Source: Streptomyces luteolus (GTDB taxonomy: Bacteria; Actinomycetota; Actinomycetes; Streptomycetales; Streptomycetaceae). From it: 64,000 nt of DNA. How positions within the stretch are numbered: position 1 is the stretch's first letter; each line of letters begins with the position of its first letter. The translations under genes and the position numbers were made by a program. Below are positions 41,299 to 52,407 of this stretch, one piece after another. The DNA is taken from positions 1-64,000 of the forward strand of contig NZ_JASCIS010000010.1 in NCBI RefSeq assembly GCF_029968015.1. Reading direction: 5' to 3'. Under the pieces are notes generated by a model. That model was not told where the DNA came from. It made no database searches and saw nothing but the letters and a program-made list of their open reading frames with translations.

Positions 41299-42780
41299 AT
41301 GCGCGCATCGGATGCCAGGACCAGCCAGAAACAGGGGCGATCGCCCCGCACCGTCGTCGTCGGCGGCGGCATCGCCGGACTCGCCGCCGCCCACCGGCTG
41401 CTCGCGGGCGGTGCGCAGGTCACCGTCCTGGAGGCGTCCGGCCGGGTCGGCGGCAAGCTGCACGCCGGGGAGATCGAGGGGGTCCGCGTCGACCTCGGCG
41501 CCGAGTCGATGCTGGCCCGGCGCCCCGAGGCGGTCGCCCTCGCCCGCGAAGTGGGCCTCGACGCCGCGCTGCAACCGCCCGCCGTCGCGAGCGCCGCCCT
41601 GTGGAACCGCGGCCATCTCACGCCCATGCCGAAGGGCCACGTGATGGGCGTGCCCGGCGACGCGGCCGTGCTCGCCGAGGTGCTGTCAGCCGAGGGCCTG
41701 CGCCGCGTCGAGGCCGAGCGCGAGCTGCCGCCCACGGAGGCCGGCGAGATCGGCGAGGACATCGCGGTCGGCGAGTACGTCGCGTCCCGCGTCGGCCGTG
41801 AGGTCGTGGACCGCCTCGTGGAGCCGCTGCTCGGCGGGGTGTACGCGGGCGACGCGTACCGCCTGTCGCTGCGCATGGCCGTGCCGCAGCTCTTCGACGT
41901 CGCGCGCTCCGGCGGCTCGCTGCTCGCCGGGGTCCGCGCGGTGCAGGAGCGGGCCGCCCGGAACCAGCGGACCGGGCCGGTGTTCATGGGCATCGAGGGC
42001 GGCATCGGCCGGCTGCCCCTCGCGGTCGCCGACGCCGTCCGCGCGAAGGGTGCCGAAATCGCCCTCCACGCGCGCGTGGACGCGGTCCGCCGCACTCCCG
42101 ACGGCTGGTCGGTGCGCACCGAGGGCCGTGAACTGCTCGCCGACGCCGTGGTCCTGGCCGTGCCCGCCGCGCAGGCCGCCCGGCTGCTCGCCCCGGACGC
42201 GCCCGCCGCGGCCGCCGAACTGCGCGCCGTCGAGTACGCCTCGATGGCCCTGATGACGCTCGCGTTCCGGCGCCGGGACGTGGACCTGCCCGAGGGCAGC
42301 GGCTTCCTCGTACCGCCCGTGGATGGACACACCATCAAGGCGTCAACCTTCGCCTCGCAGAAGTGGGCGTGGATCGCCGAGGAGAACCCCGAACTGGTCG
42401 TGCTGCGCACCTCCGTGGGCCGGTACGGCGAGGAGGAGGTGCTGCGGCGCGGCGACGACGAGCTGGTCGACGTGTCCCGCGCCGACCTGCGCGCCGCCGT
42501 CGGCCTGACCGCCGCGCCCGTCGCCACCCGGGTCACGCGCTGGGACGACGGACTGCCGCAGTACCCGGTCGGGCACCACGCGCGCGTGGCGCGGATCCGG
42601 GCGCACGTGGCGGAACTGCCGGGGCTCGCGGTCTGCGGGGCGGCGTACGACGGCGTCGGCATCCCGGCCTGCGTCGCGAGCGCGCACGCGGCCGTCGACC
42701 AGCTGGCGGGCGACCGTACGGGGATCGATCTGCTGAGCGCGAACCCGGTGCAGAGTCTGCACGGCGGCGGAGGAGAATAG
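41299..42780 (+). CDS. hemY: Coproporphyrinogen III oxidase, HemY/CgoX type (often annotated as protoporphyrinogen oxidase)
   Basis: 493 residues. The FAD motif [16 protein letters not shown] (about 18-33) and [21 protein letters not shown] follow the HemY pattern. [17 protein letters not shown] and [11 protein letters not shown] are family blocks, and the C-terminal [15 protein letters not shown] contacts FAD. In actinobacteria this enzyme oxidises coproporphyrinogen III to coproporphyrin III, not protoporphyrinogen. hemQ follows 4 bases later, which supports the coproporphyrin-dependent route. Names in use include hemY, hemG and cgoX. Confidence 0.94.
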
Positions 42781-42784
42781 CCGC

Positions 42785-43504
42785 ATGAGTGACGACGCCC
42801 CCGCCAAGATCCCCAACGCCGGCAAGAAGGCCAAGGACCTCAACGAGGTCATCCGGTACACGCTGTGGTCGGTCTTCAAGCTGAAGGACCTGCTGCCCGA
42901 AGACCGGGCCGGTTACGCCGACGAGGTCCAGGACCTGTTCGACCAGCTCGCCGCCAAGGACATCACCGTCCGCGGCACGTACGACGTCTCCGGCCTGCGC
43001 GCCGACGCCGACGTCATGATCTGGTGGCACGCCGAGACCGCGGACGAGCTGCAGGAGGCGTACAACCTCTTCCGCCGCACGAAGCTGGGCCGCGCCCTCG
43101 AACCGGTCTGGTCGAACATGGCCCTGCACCGCCCCGCCGAGTTCAACAAGGCGCACATCCCGGCGTTCCTCGCCGACGAGACCCCGCGCAACTACGTCTC
43201 GGTGTACCCCTTCGTGCGCTCGTACGACTGGTACCTGCTGCCCGACGAGGACCGCCGCCGCATGCTCGCCGACCACGGCAAGATGGCCCGCGGCTACCCG
43301 GACGTGCGCGCCAACACCGTCGCGTCCTTCTCCCTCGGGGACTACGAATGGCTGCTCGCCTTCGAGGCGGACGAGCTGTACCGCATCGTGGACCTGATGC
43401 GGCATCTGCGGGCGTCCGAGGCGCGGATGCATGTGCGTGAGGAAGTCCCGTTCTACACGGGGCGGCGGAAGTCTGTGGCGGACTTGGTGGCGGGCCTCGC
43501 CTGA
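42785..43504 (+). CDS. hemQ: HemQ/ChdC coproheme decarboxylase
   Basis: 239 residues. ATG with GGAGGAG about 12 bases upstream, the box lying inside the end of hemY, so the two are coupled. The chlorite-dismutase-like fold is recognisable from [39 protein letters not shown] and [32 protein letters not shown]. It converts coproheme to heme b with peroxide, the last step of the coproporphyrin-dependent pathway of actinobacteria. Its end is followed by the nested palindromic repeat. Confidence 0.95.
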
Positions 43505-45379: not shown

Positions 45380-46162
45380 CTATTGACCCTGACGAGTACG
45401 CCCGTGCGCGAACGCGGCCCGCAGGCGCGGGTCGGAGAGCGCGTCCACGCCGCGCACCGCGACCGCCGCGAGCGGGTCCCGTTGGTCGAGCGCCGGGCCG
45501 AGCGCCCCGAGCAGCCGCCGGCCCGCGGGGGAGGCCCAGCGGGTGTACGCGTGGATCTCGGTGCGGGCGATCGCGAGCGAGCCGAGGGTCAGCGCGAGCG
45601 GCAGCGCGAACCAGGCCAGGACCGGAAGCGCACCGCCCGCTTCCCGCGGGTGCAGGGCAAGGGCCACCACGGCGAGCGCGAACACCGCGAGGGCCGCCGC
45701 CCGCACCTGCCGGATCGCCCCCGTGACGTGCAGCCGCGCCGCGGTCGGTACGGCGAGCCCCGCCGCGGTGAGCCGTTCGGCGAGTGCGTGCACCGGGACC
45801 GTGGCGGCGGCCGAGGCGCGCACCGGGGCGATCCGCTGCTGGCCCTCGGGCCCGATCGCGCCGAGCACACAGCGCTCCATCTCGTCCCGGCCGTCCGGGT
45901 CGACGACGGTTGCCCAGCCGGTGTGCGCGAGCAGCAGCCGTCCGGCGCCGGCCATCGAGACCAGGGTCAGGTCGGCGACCCGGCGCGGCCCGCCGGCCAG
46001 GAACGCGGCCTCGTACAGGGTCAGTTCATGCCGGGCCGCCGCGCGCCGCTCGGCCGCGGGGCTTTCCGCGGCGCGGGTCGCCGCGACACACAGGCGGGCG
46101 CAGGCAAGGCCGGCGATGGCCCAGGCCGGAACGAGGAAGAACACCCAGAACATGGCGGACAT
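45380..46162 (-). CDS. TIGR04222-family membrane protein without Cys-rich tail
   Basis: 260 residues; ATG at 46162, or 46153 (MFWVFFLVPAW). An N-terminal membrane segment is followed by the family block [32 protein letters not shown], then two further membrane helices (LAVFALAVVALAL, LPVLAWFALPLALTLGSLAI). The C-terminus is short and ordered (SDPRLRAAFAHGRTRQGQ), unlike the paralogue upstream. It follows that gene after 131 bases on the same strand, so it may be the last gene of the DUF692 operon. Function unknown. Confidence 0.8.
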   Translation of the reverse strand: MSAMFWVFFLVPAWAIAGLACARLCVAATRAAESPAAERRAAARHELTLYEAAFLAGGPRRVADLTLVSMAGAGRLLLAHTGWATVVDPDGRDEMERCVLGAIGPEGQQRIAPVRASAAATVPVHALAERLTAAGLAVPTAARLHVTGAIRQVRAAALAVFALAVVALALHPREAGGALPVLAWFALPLALTLGSLAIARTEIHAYTRWASPAGRRLLGALGPALDQRDPLAAVAVRGVDALSDPRLRAAFAHGRTRQGQ

Positions 46163-46293: not shown

Positions 46294-47304
46294 TCAGGAG
46301 CCGCCGCCTCCGCAACCCCCACCGCCACCACCGCCTCCGCCACCCCCACCGCAGCTGGAACCGCCCCCTCCGCCCCCGCAACTGGAGCCGCCCGAGCCGC
46401 CCGACGAGCCGCCGCAGGACGAGCCGCCGCAGGACGACCCCCCGCAGGAGGAGCCGCCGCTGCCGCCGCCGCACCACGTCACCGAGGTGTCGCCGACGAA
46501 CACCACCGGCGCGCCGACCCCCGCCGAGGCCGCCGCGCTGTTCGCCCGCATCCGGCTCGCCGTCGTCAGCTGCTCGCGCATCACCGGGTCCGGCACGACA
46601 CGCGGACCGTCGCATGCCACGAGGTGCACCGGGTCCGCGCCGTTGCCCGCCGACCGGAACTGGAAGAGCGCCCGCTTGCCCGCGCCGGTCACCCGCGCTC
46701 CGGTGATCCCCAGGCACACCAGGCCGATCACGAACCCGGCGCCGGTCACCGGGATCGCGACGACGACGAAGGGCACCCCGAAGCCCGCACCGTCGAGGGC
46801 CGCGAACTGGACCACCGTCAGGACGACCGCCAGACAGAACGCCAGGAACGACACCAGGGTCTGCGTGCCGGACCAGCGCCGCAGCGGGCGCTGCTCCTCG
46901 GGCCGCACCAGGAGCCCGCGCAGCGCGAGGGCGTCCCCGACCGCCTGCACGGACGGGCTGCGCATCACGCCGATCCGCAGCCAGTGCAGGGCGCCGCTCG
47001 GCGCCGCCGCGTGCGCGTCCAGGACCGCCTGCTCCACCGGGTGGTACGCGACGGCCTGCCGCACGCCGACCACGCCGGGCCCGGCGAGGGCGAGCCGTCC
47101 GTCCGCGTGCATCGCCGTCAGGACCGTGTCCGCGACCCGGCCGGGACCGCCCGCGAGGAACGCCGCCTCCAGCGGGTCGGACACGTACGGATGCGTGGGC
47201 GTGCCCGCCGAGCGGGCCTTGACCACGTTGACGAGCAGCCCGATCGCGGAGCCGCCGATGCCCAGGTAGTACAGGAGCGTCAGGACGATGTACATGTCGC
47301 TCAC
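46294..47304 (-). CDS. TIGR04222-family membrane protein with Gly/Ser/Cys-rich tail, likely MNIO substrate
   Basis: 336 residues from GTG overlapping the DUF692 stop (GTGA). An N-terminal helix ([23 protein letters not shown]) precedes the family block [31 protein letters not shown] and two central helices (about 165-230). The last 59 residues (278-336, bases 46297-46473) consist only of Gly, Ser and Cys. Seven cysteines stand at 278, 287, 292, 297, 309, 318 and 331; five are in SSCGG units. TIGR04222 proteins are known for such near-low-complexity tails. Coupling to a DUF692 enzyme, a family that oxidises peptide cysteines, suggests the tail is modified. Confidence 0.82.
46297..46473 (-). 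repeat. Coding repeat: SSCGG / poly-Gly tail of the TIGR04222 protein
   Basis: The codons of the tail are strongly repetitive (tcctgcggcggc-type units, then glycine runs). The serine-serine-cysteine-glycine-glycine unit starts at residues 285, 290, 295, 307 and 316. The glycine stretch near the end is 12 long. Codon choice varies (GGC, GGT, GGG, GGA), so it is not a simple slippage product. Confidence 0.85.
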
Positions 47305-48770
47305 CGTCCGGTCAGGGTGTAGCGGGCCCGGCGTACGAAACGGGCCACGGGGTGGGTGGAGACCGGTGCTGGCCCGGACCGCTCCAGCCACCAGTCGCTC
47401 AACTCCCGCCGCGCTTCGGCGTCTTCGGGTCGGCCGTCGAGCAGCAGATGCTCGGCGAAGTCCAGGGCGTCGCGGCGGTAGCCGCCGGTCATCGGGCGCT
47501 TCGCGGCGTACGCGAAGAAGCTGGGGCGGTACGTGTCGCCGAGGATCACGGGCAGTTCCGGGGCGACCTTCGCGATCACGTCGGCCCGCTTGCCGGTGAG
47601 CGCGCGGCTCTGCACGGCGAGCCGCTGCCGGTCGTAGCCCTCGGGCACGGGTGTACCGGCGACGAGCGCGGAGAGCAGCGCGGCCTGCGCGAGCGCGAGC
47701 CGCTGCCGGGCGGGGTCGGGAACGGTCTCCGTCTCCGTGGCCGGGGAGTCGGCCTCGGACTCCGACTCGGGATCCGCCTCCGTTTCCCTGGCCGGAGGGG
47801 GCGTTCCCGTACCGAGCGGGGCGCCGGAGGGGCGGCCGACGGTGACGTGTTCGGTCGCCGTGCGCTCGGCGCGGGCCGGGGCGGCGGTGACCAGCTCGGC
47901 GGCCCGCTCCGGAGTGGCCGGGATCAGCCGCCGGGCGGCGCCGGCCGCGACGGTACGGCGGATCGCCTGCAGCTCCCGCTCCAGCTCCTCGGGCGCCGGG
48001 AAGTTCTCGTCCCGCTCCAGGAGCACCCCGGGCGGGCTGACCCGCGAGGCGAGTTCGGCGAGCACGTCAAGGACCGGCTGCGTGACCGGGTGGGCGTGGC
48101 TGTCGTGCCACACGCCGTCCCGCTCGAACCCGCCCGCCACGTGCACGTACGCGATGGCCTCCACCGGCAGCTCGTCGAGCGCGGTGCACGGGTCCTCGCC
48201 CCGGTTGACGTGGTTGGTGTGCAGATTGGCGACGTCGATCAGGAGCCGTACGCCGGTCCGGTCCACCAGGTCGTACAGGAACTGGCCCTCGGTCATCTCC
48301 TCGCCCGGCCAGTTGATCAGGGCGGCGATGTTCTCCAGGGCGAGCGGCACCGGCAGGGCGTCCTGCGCGATCCGGACGTGCTCGCACAGCACGTCGAGGG
48401 AGTCCTTGGTGCGCGGCACCGGCAGCAGATGCCCGGCCTCCAGGCGCGGGGAGGCGGTCAGGGCACCCCCGGCCCGTACGAACGCGATGTGCTCGGTGAC
48501 CAGCGGCGAACCCAGTGCCTGGGCGCGCTCGGCGAGGGCGGTGAGCCGCTCCGGGTCGGGCCGCTCGGCGCCGCCGATGCCGAGGCCCACACCGTGCGGG
48601 ACGACGGTGACGCCGCGCTCGCGCAGCCGCGTCAGGGAGTCCGGTATGTGGCCGGGGCACACGTTCTCGGCGACGACCTCGACCCAGTCGAGCCCGGGCA
48701 TCCGCTCCACGGCCTCGGCGATCTCCGGGCGCCAGCCCATGCCGGTCCCCAGGTGTGCTGTCTGCTGCAT
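47301..48770 (-). CDS. DUF692 multinuclear iron oxidase (MNIO) fused to a C-terminal partner-like domain
   Basis: 489 residues from ATG at 48768-48770 with GGAGGGGG directly upstream; the longer frame is non-coding. Residues 1-275 are a DUF692 TIM barrel ([24 protein letters not shown]) with metal-binding candidates H59, E93/H94, E146, D179, H184/H187, H210, H222-D223-H225-H227 and E252. DUF692 enzymes such as MbnB and TglH use two or three irons to modify cysteines of peptide substrates. A disordered Glu/Pro linker (about 285-350) leads to a 140-residue domain ([21 protein letters not shown]..., [17 protein letters not shown]) that may replace the separate substrate-binding partner. The overlapping next gene encodes a Cys-rich tail, its likely substrate. 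Confidence 0.88.
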
Positions 48771-48926: not shown

Positions 48927-48964
48927 CGTACTCAGTGCGGCTGCACGCACGTACTCAGTGCGGC
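48927..48964 (+). repeat. 15-bp direct repeat at the 3' end of the DUF4142 gene
   Basis: cgtactcagtgcggc occurs at 48927-48941 and again at 48950-48964. The second copy contains the DUF4142 stop codon and last codons; the first lies just downstream. It looks like a short local duplication of the gene end. Confidence 0.7.
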
Positions 48965-49695
48965 ATCTCCGACGGCTTCGGCCGGGACGTGAACGACTGG
49001 TTGCCGGTCGGCGTCGCCGGGACCGGGTCGGTGGGCAGCGGGCCCGAGGGCGGTGGCGGTCCGGTCGGGCTCGCGGTGGCCTGGTTCGCGGCCTCGGAGG
49101 CGAGGGCGTCGAAGTCCACGAGCCCGGTGGCCTCCAGCATCGTGATGTGGTCGAGCACGGTCTGGTTGGCGTCACTGGCGAGCTGCCGGACCAGGGTGTT
49201 GCGGGTGGTGTGCCGCACCTGCGCGATCAGGGAGAACACCTTGCCGTGCGCGTTGCGCAGCAGGTTCGCGAACTTCCGCTGGTACGTCTCGCCCTGCGCC
49301 TCGGTCAACTCGTCCAGCCAGCCCTGCTGTTGCTCGTTCGGCTGGTTCGGCAGCTCGACGCCCAGCTGGGCCGCGACCGCGCGCACCCGCTCGTCGAGAT
49401 CGGCGTGCCCGACGACCAGATGGTCACCGGCCGCCTTGATCGCCTCGCTGGGCGCCCGCTCGATCGCCTGCTGGCCGGCGGGCAGCTCCCACAGCCCGGC
49501 GAGCCTGACCTTCACGATGAAATCCCGGTCGGTCGCCGACAACGGCCCCCACCGCGTGGCGACACTCGACGCGTCCAGATTGGCCTCCCCGGTCCCGGAC
49601 CGGTCCCCGTACGACCAGACGGGGAACGCGAGCGCCCCGAGGGTCGCCACGAGGGCGGCGATGATCAGGACCGTGCCGTTGATCCGTCGGAACAA
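48955..49695 (-). CDS. Secreted DUF4142 protein
   Basis: 246 residues from TTG, the only start that includes the signal peptide ([29 protein letters not shown]). The helical DUF4142 domain covers about 50-190 ([57 protein letters not shown]). A proline-rich tail follows. The family is ferritin-like in helical content but metal residues are not obvious. It is upstream of the DUF692 gene on the same strand with a 184-bp gap, so cotranscription is possible. Confidence 0.85.
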
Positions 49696-49866: not shown

Positions 49867-50943
49867 ATGACGCAGGTCCAGACCGTGCGCGGCCCCGTCG
49901 ACAGCACCGCTCTCGGTGTGACGCTGATGCACGAGCACCTCTTCGTGCTCACCGCGGACGTGCAGGCCAACCACCCCGAGGAGTGGGGCTCGGAGGAGGA
50001 ACGCGTCACCGACGCCGTCCACCGACTGCAGCGCGCGTTCGACGCGGGGGTGCGCACGATCGTCGACCCCACCGTGATCGGTCTGGGGCGCTACATTCCC
50101 CGGGTCCGGGCGATCGCCGAGTCGACTCCGCTGAACATCGTGGTGGCCACGGGCGTCTACACGTACGACGACGTCCCCTTCTACTTCCACCACCGCGGGC
50201 CCGCGCTCAACGAGGCGCTCGGCACCGAAGTGCCGGACCCCATGGTCGACATGTTCGTCGGCGACATCCGCGACGGCATCGCGGGCACCGGTGTCCGGGC
50301 GGGCATGCTGAAGTGCGCGATCGACGAGAAGGGCCTGACTCCCGGCGTCGAGCGGGTGATGCGGGCGGTCGGGCGGGCGCACCGGGAGACCGGCACCCCC
50401 ATCACCGTGCACACCCATCCCGCCTCGCACACCGGCCGGGAGGTCGAGCGGGTGATGTGCGAGGAGGAGGGCGTCGACCCCGGCCGTATCGTCCTCGGCC
50501 ACAGTGGCGACAGCACGGACTGCGACCACCTCGCGAGCCTCGCCGACGCGGGTTTCGTCCTCGGCATGGACCGCTTCGGCATCAACCTCGACACGACCTT
50601 CGAGGCCCGCGCGAAGACCCTCATCGAGATGGTGCGCCGCGGCTACGGCGAGCGGATGGTCCTCTCGCAGGACGCGTCCTGCTACATCGACTGGATCGAC
50701 CCGGCCGTCCGCGAACTCCTGCCGCAGTGGCACTACACGCACCTCTTCGAGGACGTCATCCCGTACGCACTCGAACACGGCCTGACCCGCGAGCAGTTCG
50801 ACGTGATGCTCACGGAGGTGCCGCGGCGGTTCTTCGAGGGCGGCCAGGACGGCCCAGGGGCCGTCTCTAGCGTGCCTGCGGAGCGCCCCGCAGTGCCGGA
50901 TGGTCCGCCACCACCGTGCACGACCCCGGAGCGATCTCCGTGA
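49867..50943 (+). CDS. Phosphotriesterase-family metal hydrolase (lactonase-like)
   Basis: 358 residues from ATG with GAGAGGAA upstream. Metal ligands of the amidohydrolase barrel are visible: HEHLF near residue 22-26, the bridging lysine region (MLKCAIDEKGLTP), HTHPASHTG, GHSGDSTD, and SQDASCY. The fold is that of PTE/Php enzymes, many of which act as lactonases or carboxylesterases. The natural substrate is unknown. The last ~30 residues read through into the convergent PTH2 gene (77-bp overlap) and look like an added, unstructured tail after RRFFEGG. Confidence 0.88.
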   Translation: MTQVQTVRGPVDSTALGVTLMHEHLFVLTADVQANHPEEWGSEEERVTDAVHRLQRAFDAGVRTIVDPTVIGLGRYIPRVRAIAESTPLNIVVATGVYTYDDVPFYFHHRGPALNEALGTEVPDPMVDMFVGDIRDGIAGTGVRAGMLKCAIDEKGLTPGVERVMRAVGRAHRETGTPITVHTHPASHTGREVERVMCEEEGVDPGRIVLGHSGDSTDCDHLASLADAGFVLGMDRFGINLDTTFEARAKTLIEMVRRGYGERMVLSQDASCYIDWIDPAVRELLPQWHYTHLFEDVIPYALEHGLTREQFDVMLTEVPRRFFEGGQDGPGAVSSVPAERPAVPDGPPPPCTTPERSP

Positions 50944-51592
50944 AGCCCGCGTCCCGTACGACCGGCAGGCCGCTCGTCGTCAGCGTGGGCCAGTCGGCCG
51001 GGGTGGCCGTGCGGACCGCGAGGGGGAAGTGCGCGTCGCGCCACTCCTCGCGCCGGGCGTCGGAGAGTGCCCACCAGGCGAGTTGCGCGCCGTGGCCCGC
51101 CTGGGCCATCGCCTTGCCCGCCGACATGTCGAGGTCCGGGCTGAGCCAGAGCACCGGCTCGGCGCGGTCCGGGGCGGGCGGGGGCTCCGGGTCGTCCAGG
51201 TCGGTGCCGGAGACCTGGAGGCGGGCCAGGTCCTTGGGCCAGCCGTCGAGCGGCACCGGCGGGTAGACCCGCACCTCCGTGGCCTTGCCGGTGACCGTGA
51301 TCCCGGGCAGCGCCTCCGCCCGCCGCCACTCCGCGCCGCGCGCCCGCCGGACCACCTTGCGGATCCGGGCGTCCTGCCAGTCCCGTACGGCCTGCGCCCA
51401 GGGGCCCTCGCCGAGGGCGTGCTCGTCGGCGAGGAGGGTCAGGACGGCGCGGGCGGCGGTCTCCAGGGCGTCGGTGCGGGCCGGCGGCGCGGCCTTCTCG
51501 ATGCGGACGACGAGGGGGAGGACGAACTGCGGTGCCTCGTCGGGGTCGCGGGAGACGTTCTCGGGCTCGGCGGAGGGGTTCAGGCTGCTCAC
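50867..51592 (-). CDS. Peptidyl-tRNA hydrolase 2 family protein
   Basis: 241 residues from GTG at 51590-51592 (CGGA box close upstream). The C-terminal ~125 residues are a PTH2 (Bit1-like) domain: LSPDLDMSAGKAMAQAGHGAQLAWWAL, HFPLAVRTATPADWP, and VRDAGFTEIAPGSCTVVADHPAL. The N-terminal ~110 residues are an actinobacterial extension (FVLPLVVRIEKAAPPARTDALETAARAVLTLLADE). It probably releases tRNA from stalled peptidyl-tRNAs alongside the usual Pth. The gene is alone and convergent with the phosphotriesterase gene. Confidence 0.85.
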   Translation of the reverse strand: MSSLNPSAEPENVSRDPDEAPQFVLPLVVRIEKAAPPARTDALETAARAVLTLLADEHALGEGPWAQAVRDWQDARIRKVVRRARGAEWRRAEALPGITVTGKATEVRVYPPVPLDGWPKDLARLQVSGTDLDDPEPPPAPDRAEPVLWLSPDLDMSAGKAMAQAGHGAQLAWWALSDARREEWRDAHFPLAVRTATPADWPTLTTSGLPVVRDAGFTEIAPGSCTVVADHPALRGAPQAR

Positions 51593-51729
51593 TCCGTCCA
51601 GTGTGCCAGCGAGGCACGGCCACCCTCCCGCCGGGCGCCGCACCGCAGTTAGAGTCGACCCTGCCCTCCCGACCCGGAGGGACGCACCGGCGCACAGACC
51701 GGTCGACGGCAGCAGAACCGGGGGTTCCG

Positions 51730-52407
51730 ATGAAGAGCGAACTGTTCGCTTCGCAGAACATGGCACAGCCCGCCACGGCGCCGGGCATGAGCCAGCAGAA
51801 CTCGAAGTCCATCAAGTACGTGGTGAATGGCGAGATGTACGCCCGGCAGGGCTCGATGATCGCCTTCCGCGGCAATCTGCAGTTCGAGCACAAGGGGCAG
51901 GGCGTCGGCGGCATGCTCAAGCGGGCCATCACGGGCGAGGGCCTGGCGCTGATGGCGGTGCGCGGCCAGGGCGAGGCGTGGTTCGCGCAGGAGGCGGCCA
52001 ACTGCTTCATCGTCGACATCGACCCCGGCGACTCGCTCACCATCAACGGCCGCAACGTCCTCTGCTTCGACCCCTCCCTCTCGTACGACATCCAGACGGT
52101 GAAGGGCGCGGGCATGGCCGGAGGCGGGCTGTTCAACAGTGTCTTCACCGGGCAGGGCAAGCTCGCCGTCATCTGCGAGGGCGACCCCATCGTGATCCCC
52201 GTCAGCCAGCAGGCCCCGGTGTACGTGGACACCGACGCCGTCGTCGGCTGGAGCTCGCAGCTGCACACCTCGCTGAACCGCTCGCAGAGCTTCGGCTCGA
52301 TGATCCGCGGCGGCTCCGGCGAGGCGGTCCAACTCATGCTGCAGGGCGACGGTTTCGTGATCGTGCGCCCGAGCGAGGCCGTCCCGCACAAGCCCGGCCA
52401 GAACTGA
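51730..52407 (+). CDS. AIM24/TIGR00266 family protein
   Basis: 225 residues from ATG with GGGGG 5 bases upstream. A beta-sheet-rich AIM24 fold is recognisable from VNGEMYARQGSMIAFRGNLQF, GEAWFAQEAANCFIVDIDPGDSLTINGRNVLCFD and GDGFVIVRPSEAV. These proteins occur in all kingdoms; a tryptophan-biosynthesis-RNA-binding-like fold is known but the role is unclear. It is followed by an ABC ATPase 5 bases after its stop, so it may be part of the same operon. Confidence 0.88.
   Translation: MKSELFASQNMAQPATAPGMSQQNSKSIKYVVNGEMYARQGSMIAFRGNLQFEHKGQGVGGMLKRAITGEGLALMAVRGQGEAWFAQEAANCFIVDIDPGDSLTINGRNVLCFDPSLSYDIQTVKGAGMAGGGLFNSVFTGQGKLAVICEGDPIVIPVSQQAPVYVDTDAVVGWSSQLHTSLNRSQSFGSMIRGGSGEAVQLMLQGDGFVIVRPSEAVPHKPGQN

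What the first reader, a model, noticed from the sequence alone, without database searches (positions are those of the whole stretch)
46294..48770. DUF692/MNIO oxidase translationally coupled to a membrane protein with a seven-cysteine Gly/Ser tail
The MNIO gene (47301-48770) ends in a GTGA overlap with a TIGR04222 membrane protein (46294-47304). That protein's last 59 residues are only Gly, Ser and Cys, with cysteines at 278, 287, 292, 297, 309, 318 and 331, five of them in SSCGG units. Characterised MNIOs (MbnB, TglH, ChrH) oxidise cysteines of free ribosomal peptides. Here the likely substrate is fused to a multi-helix membrane protein, which would make a surface-anchored modified tail rather than a released natural product. 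That arrangement is not, to my knowledge, chemically described. The coupling is seen; the reaction is inference.
Basis: partly seen in the sequence, partly recalled or inferred. Interest (0 to 1): 0.85.

Follow-up and report, generated by a model that had tools for sequence, protein, structure and literature searches.

The report
Iron oxidase beside cysteine-tailed membrane protein
A Streptomyces gene pair encodes an iron-dependent peptide-modifying enzyme, fused to what looks like its helper domain, and a membrane protein with a glycine-serine-cysteine tail that it may modify; the pairing was published in 2025, but the tail probably faces the inside of the cell and the enzyme often survives without it.

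Summary
In detail: an intact MNIO gene (47301-48770, -) overlaps by GTGA a TIGR04222 membrane protein (46294-47304, -) whose last 59 residues are only G, S and C, with seven Cys. It is not new as a kind: Antoine et al. 2025 (PMC12452194) describe Cys-tailed TIGR04222 proteins next to MNIOs, mostly in Actinomycetota, as putative substrates; no chemistry is shown. Three things are added. (1) The MNIO's C-terminal extension holds a helical partner-type domain, fused in 63 of 97 loci and a separate gene in 33, with weak DUF2063 similarity. Best reading: a fused MNIO-partner enzyme oxidises Cys-Gly units of a membrane-tethered, cytosol-facing tail and has at least one further substrate. The reaction is untested.

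The parts
47952..48746 (-). MNIO catalytic TIM-barrel domain (protein residues 9-273)
   Evidence: PF05114 E 1.9e-77; model matches TglH 8hi7_B with VIA Z 28.2, rmsd 2.9 over 269 residues; candidate ligands H59, H94, E146, D179, H210, D223, H225, E252 invariant in 36 fused MNIOs and aligned to identical residues of TglH
47721..47882 (-). low-confidence, variable linker (residues 297-350)
   Evidence: pLDDT under 50 for 304-343; length and sequence differ widely between homologues
47379..47714 (-). fused helical partner-like domain (residues 353-464), probable PME-type 2 / DUF2063-like
   Evidence: pLDDT mostly 93-98; separate gene after the MNIO in 33 of 97 loci, fused in 63; DUF2063 is the commonest Pfam match, 6 of 39 members, best E 1.7e-4, none for the window's own copy; hhalign to six DUF2063 proteins E 6.4e-4, probability 27.8%
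46294..47304 (-). TIGR04222-A membrane protein with Cys tail, start GTG overlapping the MNIO stop (alternative ATG start at 47295)
   Evidence: TIGR04222 E 2.6e-36; GTGA overlap
47209..47292 (-). TM helix 1, predicted N-terminus outside
   Evidence: model helix 2-29; no K/R in the N-terminal stretch of 26 of 32 coupled homologues
46906..47175 (-). domain between TM1 and TM2, winged-helix-like by my reading, predicted cytoplasmic
   Evidence: model helices 41-49, 51-64, strands 68-71, 75-78, helices 86-97, 103-111, 114-125; weak Pfam hits of family members: DUF2207_C 12 of 54, HTH_20 3, GPP34 3; none for the window's copy
46699..46902 (-). TM helices 2 and 3 with a short hairpin, predicted outside
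   Evidence: helices 132-166 and 176-199; hairpin has 0.41 K/R in 8 residues on average, against 3.1-3.6 in 17-19 residues of the other flanks
46297..46473 (-). 59-residue Gly/Ser/Cys tail, seven Cys, first one in W-C
   Evidence: disordered in the model; first Cys in W-C in 30 of 48 same-genus Cys tails
45380..46162 (-). TIGR04222-B, tail-less paralogue
   Evidence: TIGR04222 E 2.3e-35; a Cys-less copy lies downstream of the MNIO in 37 of 61 same-genus loci
48955..49695 (-). DUF4142 protein upstream of the MNIO; recurrent neighbour, role unknown
   Evidence: PF13628 E 2.7e-20; a DUF4142 homologue lies up- or downstream of the MNIO in 31 of 61 same-genus loci

Best explanation
The two genes form a coupled enzyme-substrate pair. 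The MNIO, with its own partner domain fused at the C-terminus, is a cytosolic iron- and oxygen-dependent enzyme. The TIGR04222 protein inserts with its N-terminus outside, so that its winged-helix-like domain and its disordered Gly/Ser/Cys tail both lie in the cytoplasm, where the MNIO can reach them without export. The enzyme then oxidises some of the Cys-Gly units of the tail (a 5-thiooxazole or an oxazolone/thioamide is the obvious guess from characterised relatives), giving a membrane-tethered soft-metal ligand on the inner face of the membrane, probably for copper or another thiophilic metal. Shown by sequence: both genes, the overlap, the intact candidate ligand set, the partner-like domain fused or separate, the Cys-Gly bias, the charge bias. 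Inferred: the topology itself, that the tail is modified, which product forms, and the metal. The enzyme must have another use as well, because many close relatives keep it without the tail.
For: Intact MNIO fold and candidate ligands. Cys tails go with MNIO adjacency: 64 of 73 against 9 of 53. The association holds with the opposite gene order in other genera: by the first-pass profile 23 of 36 loci have an adjacent Cys-tail gene, 22 scored as upstream and one (L203) with copies on both sides. Cys is followed by Gly in 70% of cases against 45% in 500 shuffles of the same tails (maximum 52%), and preceded by Ser in 46% against 29% (maximum 34%); Cys-Gly is also the unit in EGKCG precursors, where a Gly is part of the assigned 5-thiooxazole connectivity (PMC13097082, passages). 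Partner-like domain fused or following. Topology: K/R density favours N-out/C-in in 110 of 123 homologues and in 42 of 47 representatives under 50% identity.
Against: No modification has been shown. 21 of 61 same-genus MNIO loci read have no adjacent Cys-tail protein, and in four of those 21 genomes no TIGR04222-type match was found at E 0.001 (which scored the best 106 candidates per genome), though the enzyme is still there. In other genera five of 12 re-searched genomes had an MNIO and no TIGR04222 match. Antoine et al. report that 490 of 1372 genomes with TIGR04222 genes lack MNIO genes and that more than a quarter of these proteins lack C-proximal Cys, and they place the tail in the periplasm from predicted topology. 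The charge rule is a statistical predictor; 11 of 123 homologues go the other way. Identification of the fused domain as a PME rests on weak sequence similarity and gene position; it was not folded and searched on its own.
Confidence: 0.5

Rival explanations
1. The main substrate of this Streptomyces MNIO is an unlinked peptide or protein; the Cys-tailed TIGR04222 protein is a secondary, dispensable client, or a membrane anchor or metal-supplying partner of the enzyme.
For: Some MNIO is present in 114 of 121 same-genus genomes and stays intact in loci without the tail: the A2 alignment, in which the candidate ligands are invariant, includes 11 of the 21 tail-less loci, L118 among them. In the window's clade 18 of 20 rows have no adjacent Cys tail. 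No short Cys-rich gene with a ribosome site and coding-type composition was seen to recur near the MNIO in the 21 tail-less loci, judged by eye.
Against: The strong adjacency of Cys tails and MNIOs across genera and with either gene order; no alternative substrate could be named.
Confidence: 0.35
2. The tail is extracytoplasmic, as Antoine et al. predict and the reader assumed: it is modified in the cytosol before or during insertion and then displayed outside as a bufferin-like metal sponge.
For: Published topology prediction; by analogy, bufferin precursors carry Sec signal peptides.
Against: K/R per protein: 3.1 after TM1, 3.1 before TM2, 3.6 after TM3 (17-19 residues each), 0.41 in the TM2-TM3 hairpin (8 residues); by density 110 of 123 favour the tail inside. 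The N-terminus has no K/R in 26 of 32 coupled genes, unlike a signal peptide or an N-in anchor. The domain between TM1 and TM2 weakly matches winged-helix families in a few members, usually cytosolic (recalled).
Confidence: 0.25
3. The tail cysteines stay free thiols that bind metal directly, and the MNIO acts on something else in the operon.
For: Gly/Ser-rich disordered tails with spaced Cys resemble metal-binding tails; some TIGR04222-like relatives carry His/Gly tails instead (L237, L243); membrane-anchored cytosolic metal-binding tails exist, e.g. PacL1 (PMC9374683, abstract and passages). In tail-less loci a DUF4142 gene often lies downstream of the MNIO, 15 of 21 against 4 of 40 with the tail.
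Against: Does not explain why Cys tails go with MNIO adjacency; the window's DUF4142 protein has no Cys.
Confidence: 0.15

Closest known systems
MNIO-associated TIGR04222 proteins (Antoine et al. 2025, PMC12452194)
   Same: Same family, Cys-containing Ser/Gly-rich C-terminus, several TM segments, neighbouring MNIO, mostly Actinomycetota, no DUF2063 gene, PME-type 2 partners in at least 10%
   Different: Here the partner-like domain is fused to the MNIO, a case not mentioned in the passages and sections of that paper that I read; charge bias argues for a cytoplasmic tail; the tail gene is often missing while the MNIO stays
Bufferins Buf1/Buf2 and EGKCG peptides (oxazolins, fontiphorins)
   Same: Cys-rich MNIO substrates, Cys-Gly units in the EGKCG type, metal binding
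   Different: Those have Sec signal peptides and PME-type 1 (DUF2063-RRE) partners; this one shows neither and is an integral membrane protein
TglH-TglI (8hi7) and MbnB-MbnC (7dz9, 7tcr)
   Same: Closest solved enzyme folds: Z 28.2 for 8hi7_B, 27.8 for 7dz9_A, 26.3 for 7tcr_A; enzyme acts with a partner protein
   Different: Partner is a separate chain there; substrates are free peptides (recalled)
DUF2207 membrane proteins
   Same: DUF2207_C is the commonest Pfam match among TIGR04222 members (12 of 54, best E 0.0048)
   Different: Weak matches only, none for the window's protein; function unknown

Membership tests
MNIO (PF05114) | Family profile above cut-off | tested here: met
   260.5 bits against 25
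MNIO (PF05114) | TIM barrel with the conserved His/Asp/Glu metal-site residues | tested here: met
   Fold; H59, H94, E146, D179, H210, D223, H225, E252 invariant in 36 sequences and identical in the TglH alignment. That these are the ligands is recalled
MNIO (PF05114) | Iron- and oxygen-dependent oxidation of a substrate residue | not testable with these tools
   -
TIGR04222 | Family profile above cut-off | tested here: met
   125.4 bits against 43
MNIO-associated TIGR04222 putative substrates (Antoine et al.) | Cys-containing Ser/Gly-rich C-terminus next to an MNIO gene | tested here: met
MNIO-associated TIGR04222 putative substrates (Antoine et al.) | Tail outside the cytoplasm (claimed, not defining) | tested here: inconclusive
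   Charge bias points the other way in 110 of 123; no experiment
PME-type 2 partner | Gene after the MNIO, no DUF2063 Pfam signature | tested here: met
   Separate gene after the MNIO in 33 of 97 loci, gap of 171 nt or less in 28 of 33; no Pfam hit for the window's copy, weak DUF2063 hits in 6 of 39 members
PME-type 2 partner | Structural similarity to NGO1945 (3dee) or TglI | tested here: inconclusive
   The fused model's search was filled by the barrel; hhalign to DUF2063 weak; domain not folded alone
Bufferin / EGKCG RiPP precursor | Sec signal peptide | tested here: not met
   N-terminus without K/R and K/R-rich after TM1, the opposite of a signal peptide; no signal-peptide program was run
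Bufferin / EGKCG RiPP precursor | DUF2282 or EGKCG sequence | tested here: not met
   No Pfam family at E 1 or better; no EGKCG in the sequence

The most novel reading that the evidence does not exclude
A single-chain MNIO-partner enzyme works at the inner face of the membrane on the cytosolic tail of an integral membrane protein, making a tethered, inward-facing Cys-derived metal ligand rather than an exported natural product; and in most of the window's clade the same enzyme keeps serving a second, unidentified substrate after the tail protein was lost.
Probability: 0.3. Interest if true: 0.75.

Novelty: new member of a known kind. Interest (0 to 1): 0.45.

Why it matters
MNIOs are known for modifying small, mostly exported peptides. 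A substrate that is an integral membrane protein would extend the chemistry to proteins that stay in the cell, and an inward-facing tail would change its meaning from secreted metal sponge to membrane-bound metal handling. The single-chain enzyme-partner fusion is a convenient reagent for testing this. The strains that keep the enzyme but lack the tail give a natural control for finding the missing second substrate. An MNIO of some type is found in 114 of 121 genomes of the window's genus, so its role is likely of general use to the genus.

Tried and rejected
Tried without result. Rfam scan of the window: 0 matches. PDB sequence search with the partner-domain profile: one hit, E 0.64. Foldseek of the TIGR04222 model: nothing at E 0.001 or better; among the top hits TolQ and ExbB (E 0.2 and 0.55, probability 0.51 and 0.30) are a suggestive three-TM resemblance only. 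The VIA second look for the fused enzyme was filled by TIM barrels, so the partner domain was not tested there. Search for an alternative short Cys-rich gene near the MNIO in 21 tail-less loci: 33 rows, judged by eye to be mostly out-of-frame shadows of known genes, none seen to recur as a real gene. TIGR04222-A remnants in the tail-less loci: by position, matches other than L118 fall on the tail-less paralogue.

Considered and rejected. Chance low-complexity tail: rejected, since tails recur in frame across genera with Cys-Gly bias. Tail read in a wrong frame: rejected, since the family profile runs in the same frame up to the tail. DUF4142 as an alternative Cys substrate: the window's copy has no Cys; other copies looked at have few, mostly before the likely start, though L090 and L098 have two near the end. 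MNIOs can modify other residues, so this does not exclude DUF4142.

Caveats on counts. The 60 same-genus loci were chosen by me from the 114 genomes with an MNIO and purposely include four without TIGR04222 matches, so 21 of 61 (window included) is not an unbiased rate. L118 has the TIGR04222-A body with a 1-Cys tail, so 20 loci lack the gene outright. L107 is a second locus of one genome. In other genera 36 of 40 fetched loci were counted; L199, L201, L210 and L211 (other MNIO types by my judgement) were dropped. Of the 13 'none' there, a second look found a Cys-tailed copy upstream of two (L175, L188) and elsewhere in three more genomes (G352, G362, G448); one contig is cut (L213) and one adjacent copy has no tail Cys (L195). 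The 80 named loci are the best 80 of a capped scan, so biased to the window's clade: 14 Cys, 59 none by script, 7 with too little sequence; one of the 59 (L244) has the gene with a broken frame, and two of the 7 (L246, L262) end inside the gene. Low-complexity tails may also drop out of assemblies. One of the 74 tails (L142) is an overlong frame. The genus searches scored only the best 21 TIGR04222 candidates per genome. In the 21 tail-less genomes three TIGR04222-type proteins with three or more tail Cys were seen elsewhere (G009, G077, G027) among the matches that became loci; not all matches were read. The tree is a quick search with SH-aLRT support only and several long branches.

Full report
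What is there. On the minus strand a 489-residue MNIO (47301-48770) is followed by a TIGR04222 membrane protein (46294-47304) whose GTG start overlaps the MNIO stop, and then by a second, tail-less TIGR04222 gene (45380-46162). The genome is a Streptomyces by inference: the 80 named MNIO loci returned as nearest are all Streptomyces, the best at 89% identity.

How common it is. In the same genus 114 of 121 genomes have an MNIO of some type and 106 of 121 a TIGR04222 match. In the class 66 of 296 genomes have an MNIO; in the phylum 9 of 149, with TIGR04222 over its cut-off in 6 of 149. So both families are an ordinary part of Streptomyces genomes, not a rarity.

The enzyme. The predicted structure (mean pLDDT 87.1) is a TIM barrel closest to TglH and MbnB (Foldseek E 1.6e-17 for 8hci_B; VIA Z 28.2 for 8hi7_B). 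Eight candidate metal-site residues are invariant in 36 homologues and identical in TglH. After a disordered linker comes a well-predicted all-helical domain, residues 353-464. It is fused to the MNIO in 63 of 97 loci and a separate gene in 33, usually starting within 171 nt of the MNIO stop (28 of 33); one locus has none. In the own genus it is fused in 53 of 61, in other genera separate in 26 of 36. A domain that is now fused, now next door, is a classic sign of working together. Its commonest Pfam match is DUF2063, the domain of known MNIO partners, but only in 6 of 39 members and weakly (best E 1.7e-4); a profile comparison with six DUF2063 proteins from other MNIO loci (all six match PF09836 at E 0.001 or better, best 3.9e-22) gives E 6.4e-4 over 50 columns at 27.8% probability. 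I take it as a fused PME-type 2 partner, with moderate confidence. The passages and sections of Antoine et al. that I read do not mention an MNIO-partner fusion. Of the other papers listed by searches aimed at one I read passages of PMC13174530, PMC12710340 and PMC13097082 and saw none; PMC13419390, PMC11002830 and PMC12141560 I did not open. Supplements were not readable.

The membrane protein. The model shows TM1 (2-29), a domain of helices and a two-strand element (41-130) that I read as winged-helix-like, TM2, TM3 and a disordered tail (mean pLDDT 81.5). Weak Pfam matches of 54 members point to DUF2207_C (12), FA_desaturase (4), HTH_20 (3) and GPP34 (3), with many singletons; the window's protein matches none. 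Over 123 homologues, K/R per protein is 3.1 after TM1, 3.1 before TM2, 3.6 after TM3 and 0.41 in the TM2-TM3 hairpin (mean lengths 17, 17, 19 and 8 residues); by density 110 favour N-out/C-in, 11 the opposite, 2 tie; among 47 representatives under 50% identity it is 42, 4 and 1. For the coupled genes the N-terminus can hardly be misplaced, since the MNIO stop limits it, and 26 of 32 have no K/R there. It also removes a difficulty: a cytosolic enzyme can reach the tail at any time.

The tail. In 74 tails with three or more Cys, Cys is followed by Gly in 70% (shuffles 45%, maximum of 500 52%) and preceded by Ser in 46% (29%, maximum 34%). In 30 of 48 same-genus Cys tails the first Cys is in W-C, against 1 of 26 in other genera; this may be a recognition site. 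Copies within 700 nt of an MNIO have three or more tail Cys in 64 of 73 cases, others in 9 of 53 (not corrected for relatedness); of 17 same-genus copies away from any MNIO, 6 have such a tail.

Results against the simple reading. Of 61 same-genus MNIO loci read, 40 have an adjacent Cys tail and 21 do not. On an MNIO tree of 97 rows the window lies in a supported clade of 20 with 18 tail-less rows; the label needs 12 changes. Four tail-less genomes have no TIGR04222-type match at E 0.001. Of the 80 named Streptomyces loci nearest the window, 14 have the tail, 58 lack it, one has the gene with a broken frame, and 7 are too short to judge. Of three same-genus genomes with TIGR04222 but no MNIO, two have a protein without tail Cys and one has three tail Cys. 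In other genera the first-pass count is 23 of 36 with an adjacent Cys tail, and a second look adds two; five of 12 re-searched genomes have an MNIO and no TIGR04222 match. Antoine et al. add that 490 of 1372 genomes with TIGR04222 genes lack MNIO genes. So neither is tied to the other alone.

Literature. Two papers in the searchable library name TIGR04222. Antoine et al. 2025 (abstract, passages, sections 18 and 19 read) already propose that subsets of Cys-tailed TIGR04222 proteins are MNIO substrates, with the product unknown. Thiooxazole chemistry on EGKCG peptides is from PMC13097082 (passages). [quoted passage not shown]

Verdict. Real, intact, and already described as a kind. What is added is the fused partner-like domain, the case for a cytosol-facing tail, and the loss pattern that implies a second substrate.

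Noticed in passing
window 48955-49695 and loci such as L074, L090, L119: DUF4142 proteins lie upstream of the MNIO in 16 and downstream in 19 of 61 same-genus loci; downstream copies go with tail-less loci (15 of 21 against 4 of 40). Their P/S-rich C-termini often end in similar short motifs (around SFTSRP in the upstream type, TYxLPPAASSPPP in the downstream type; by eye).
   Followed up: partly
window 41299-43504 (+): The locus lies beside a chlorite-dismutase family gene and a flavin amine-oxidase-like gene, perhaps haem-pathway genes (recalled); the chlorite-dismutase neighbour matches in all 21 tail-less loci and 30 of 40 others.
   Followed up: no
L237, L243: TIGR04222-like proteins of the same genus with His/Gly-rich tails in place of Cys tails, suggesting a metal-related theme.
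   Followed up: no
L144, L145, L147, L148, L149, L034: A second MNIO type with an upstream Cys-rich protein (HVCMGLNxC...) and a clear DUF2063 protein downstream; L199 and L211 are larger copies of two of these places.
   Followed up: partly
L244, L246, L262: The closest named relative has the TIGR04222-A frame broken in its body but a Cys-rich tail still encoded; two other contigs end inside the gene, so assemblies may lose it.
   Followed up: partly
window 50867-51766 (-): A PTH2-type peptidyl-tRNA hydrolase lies near; Antoine et al. list a peptidyl-tRNA hydrolase family (adjamnio-II, PF01195, a different Pfam) beside MNIO-TIGR04222 genes.
   Followed up: no
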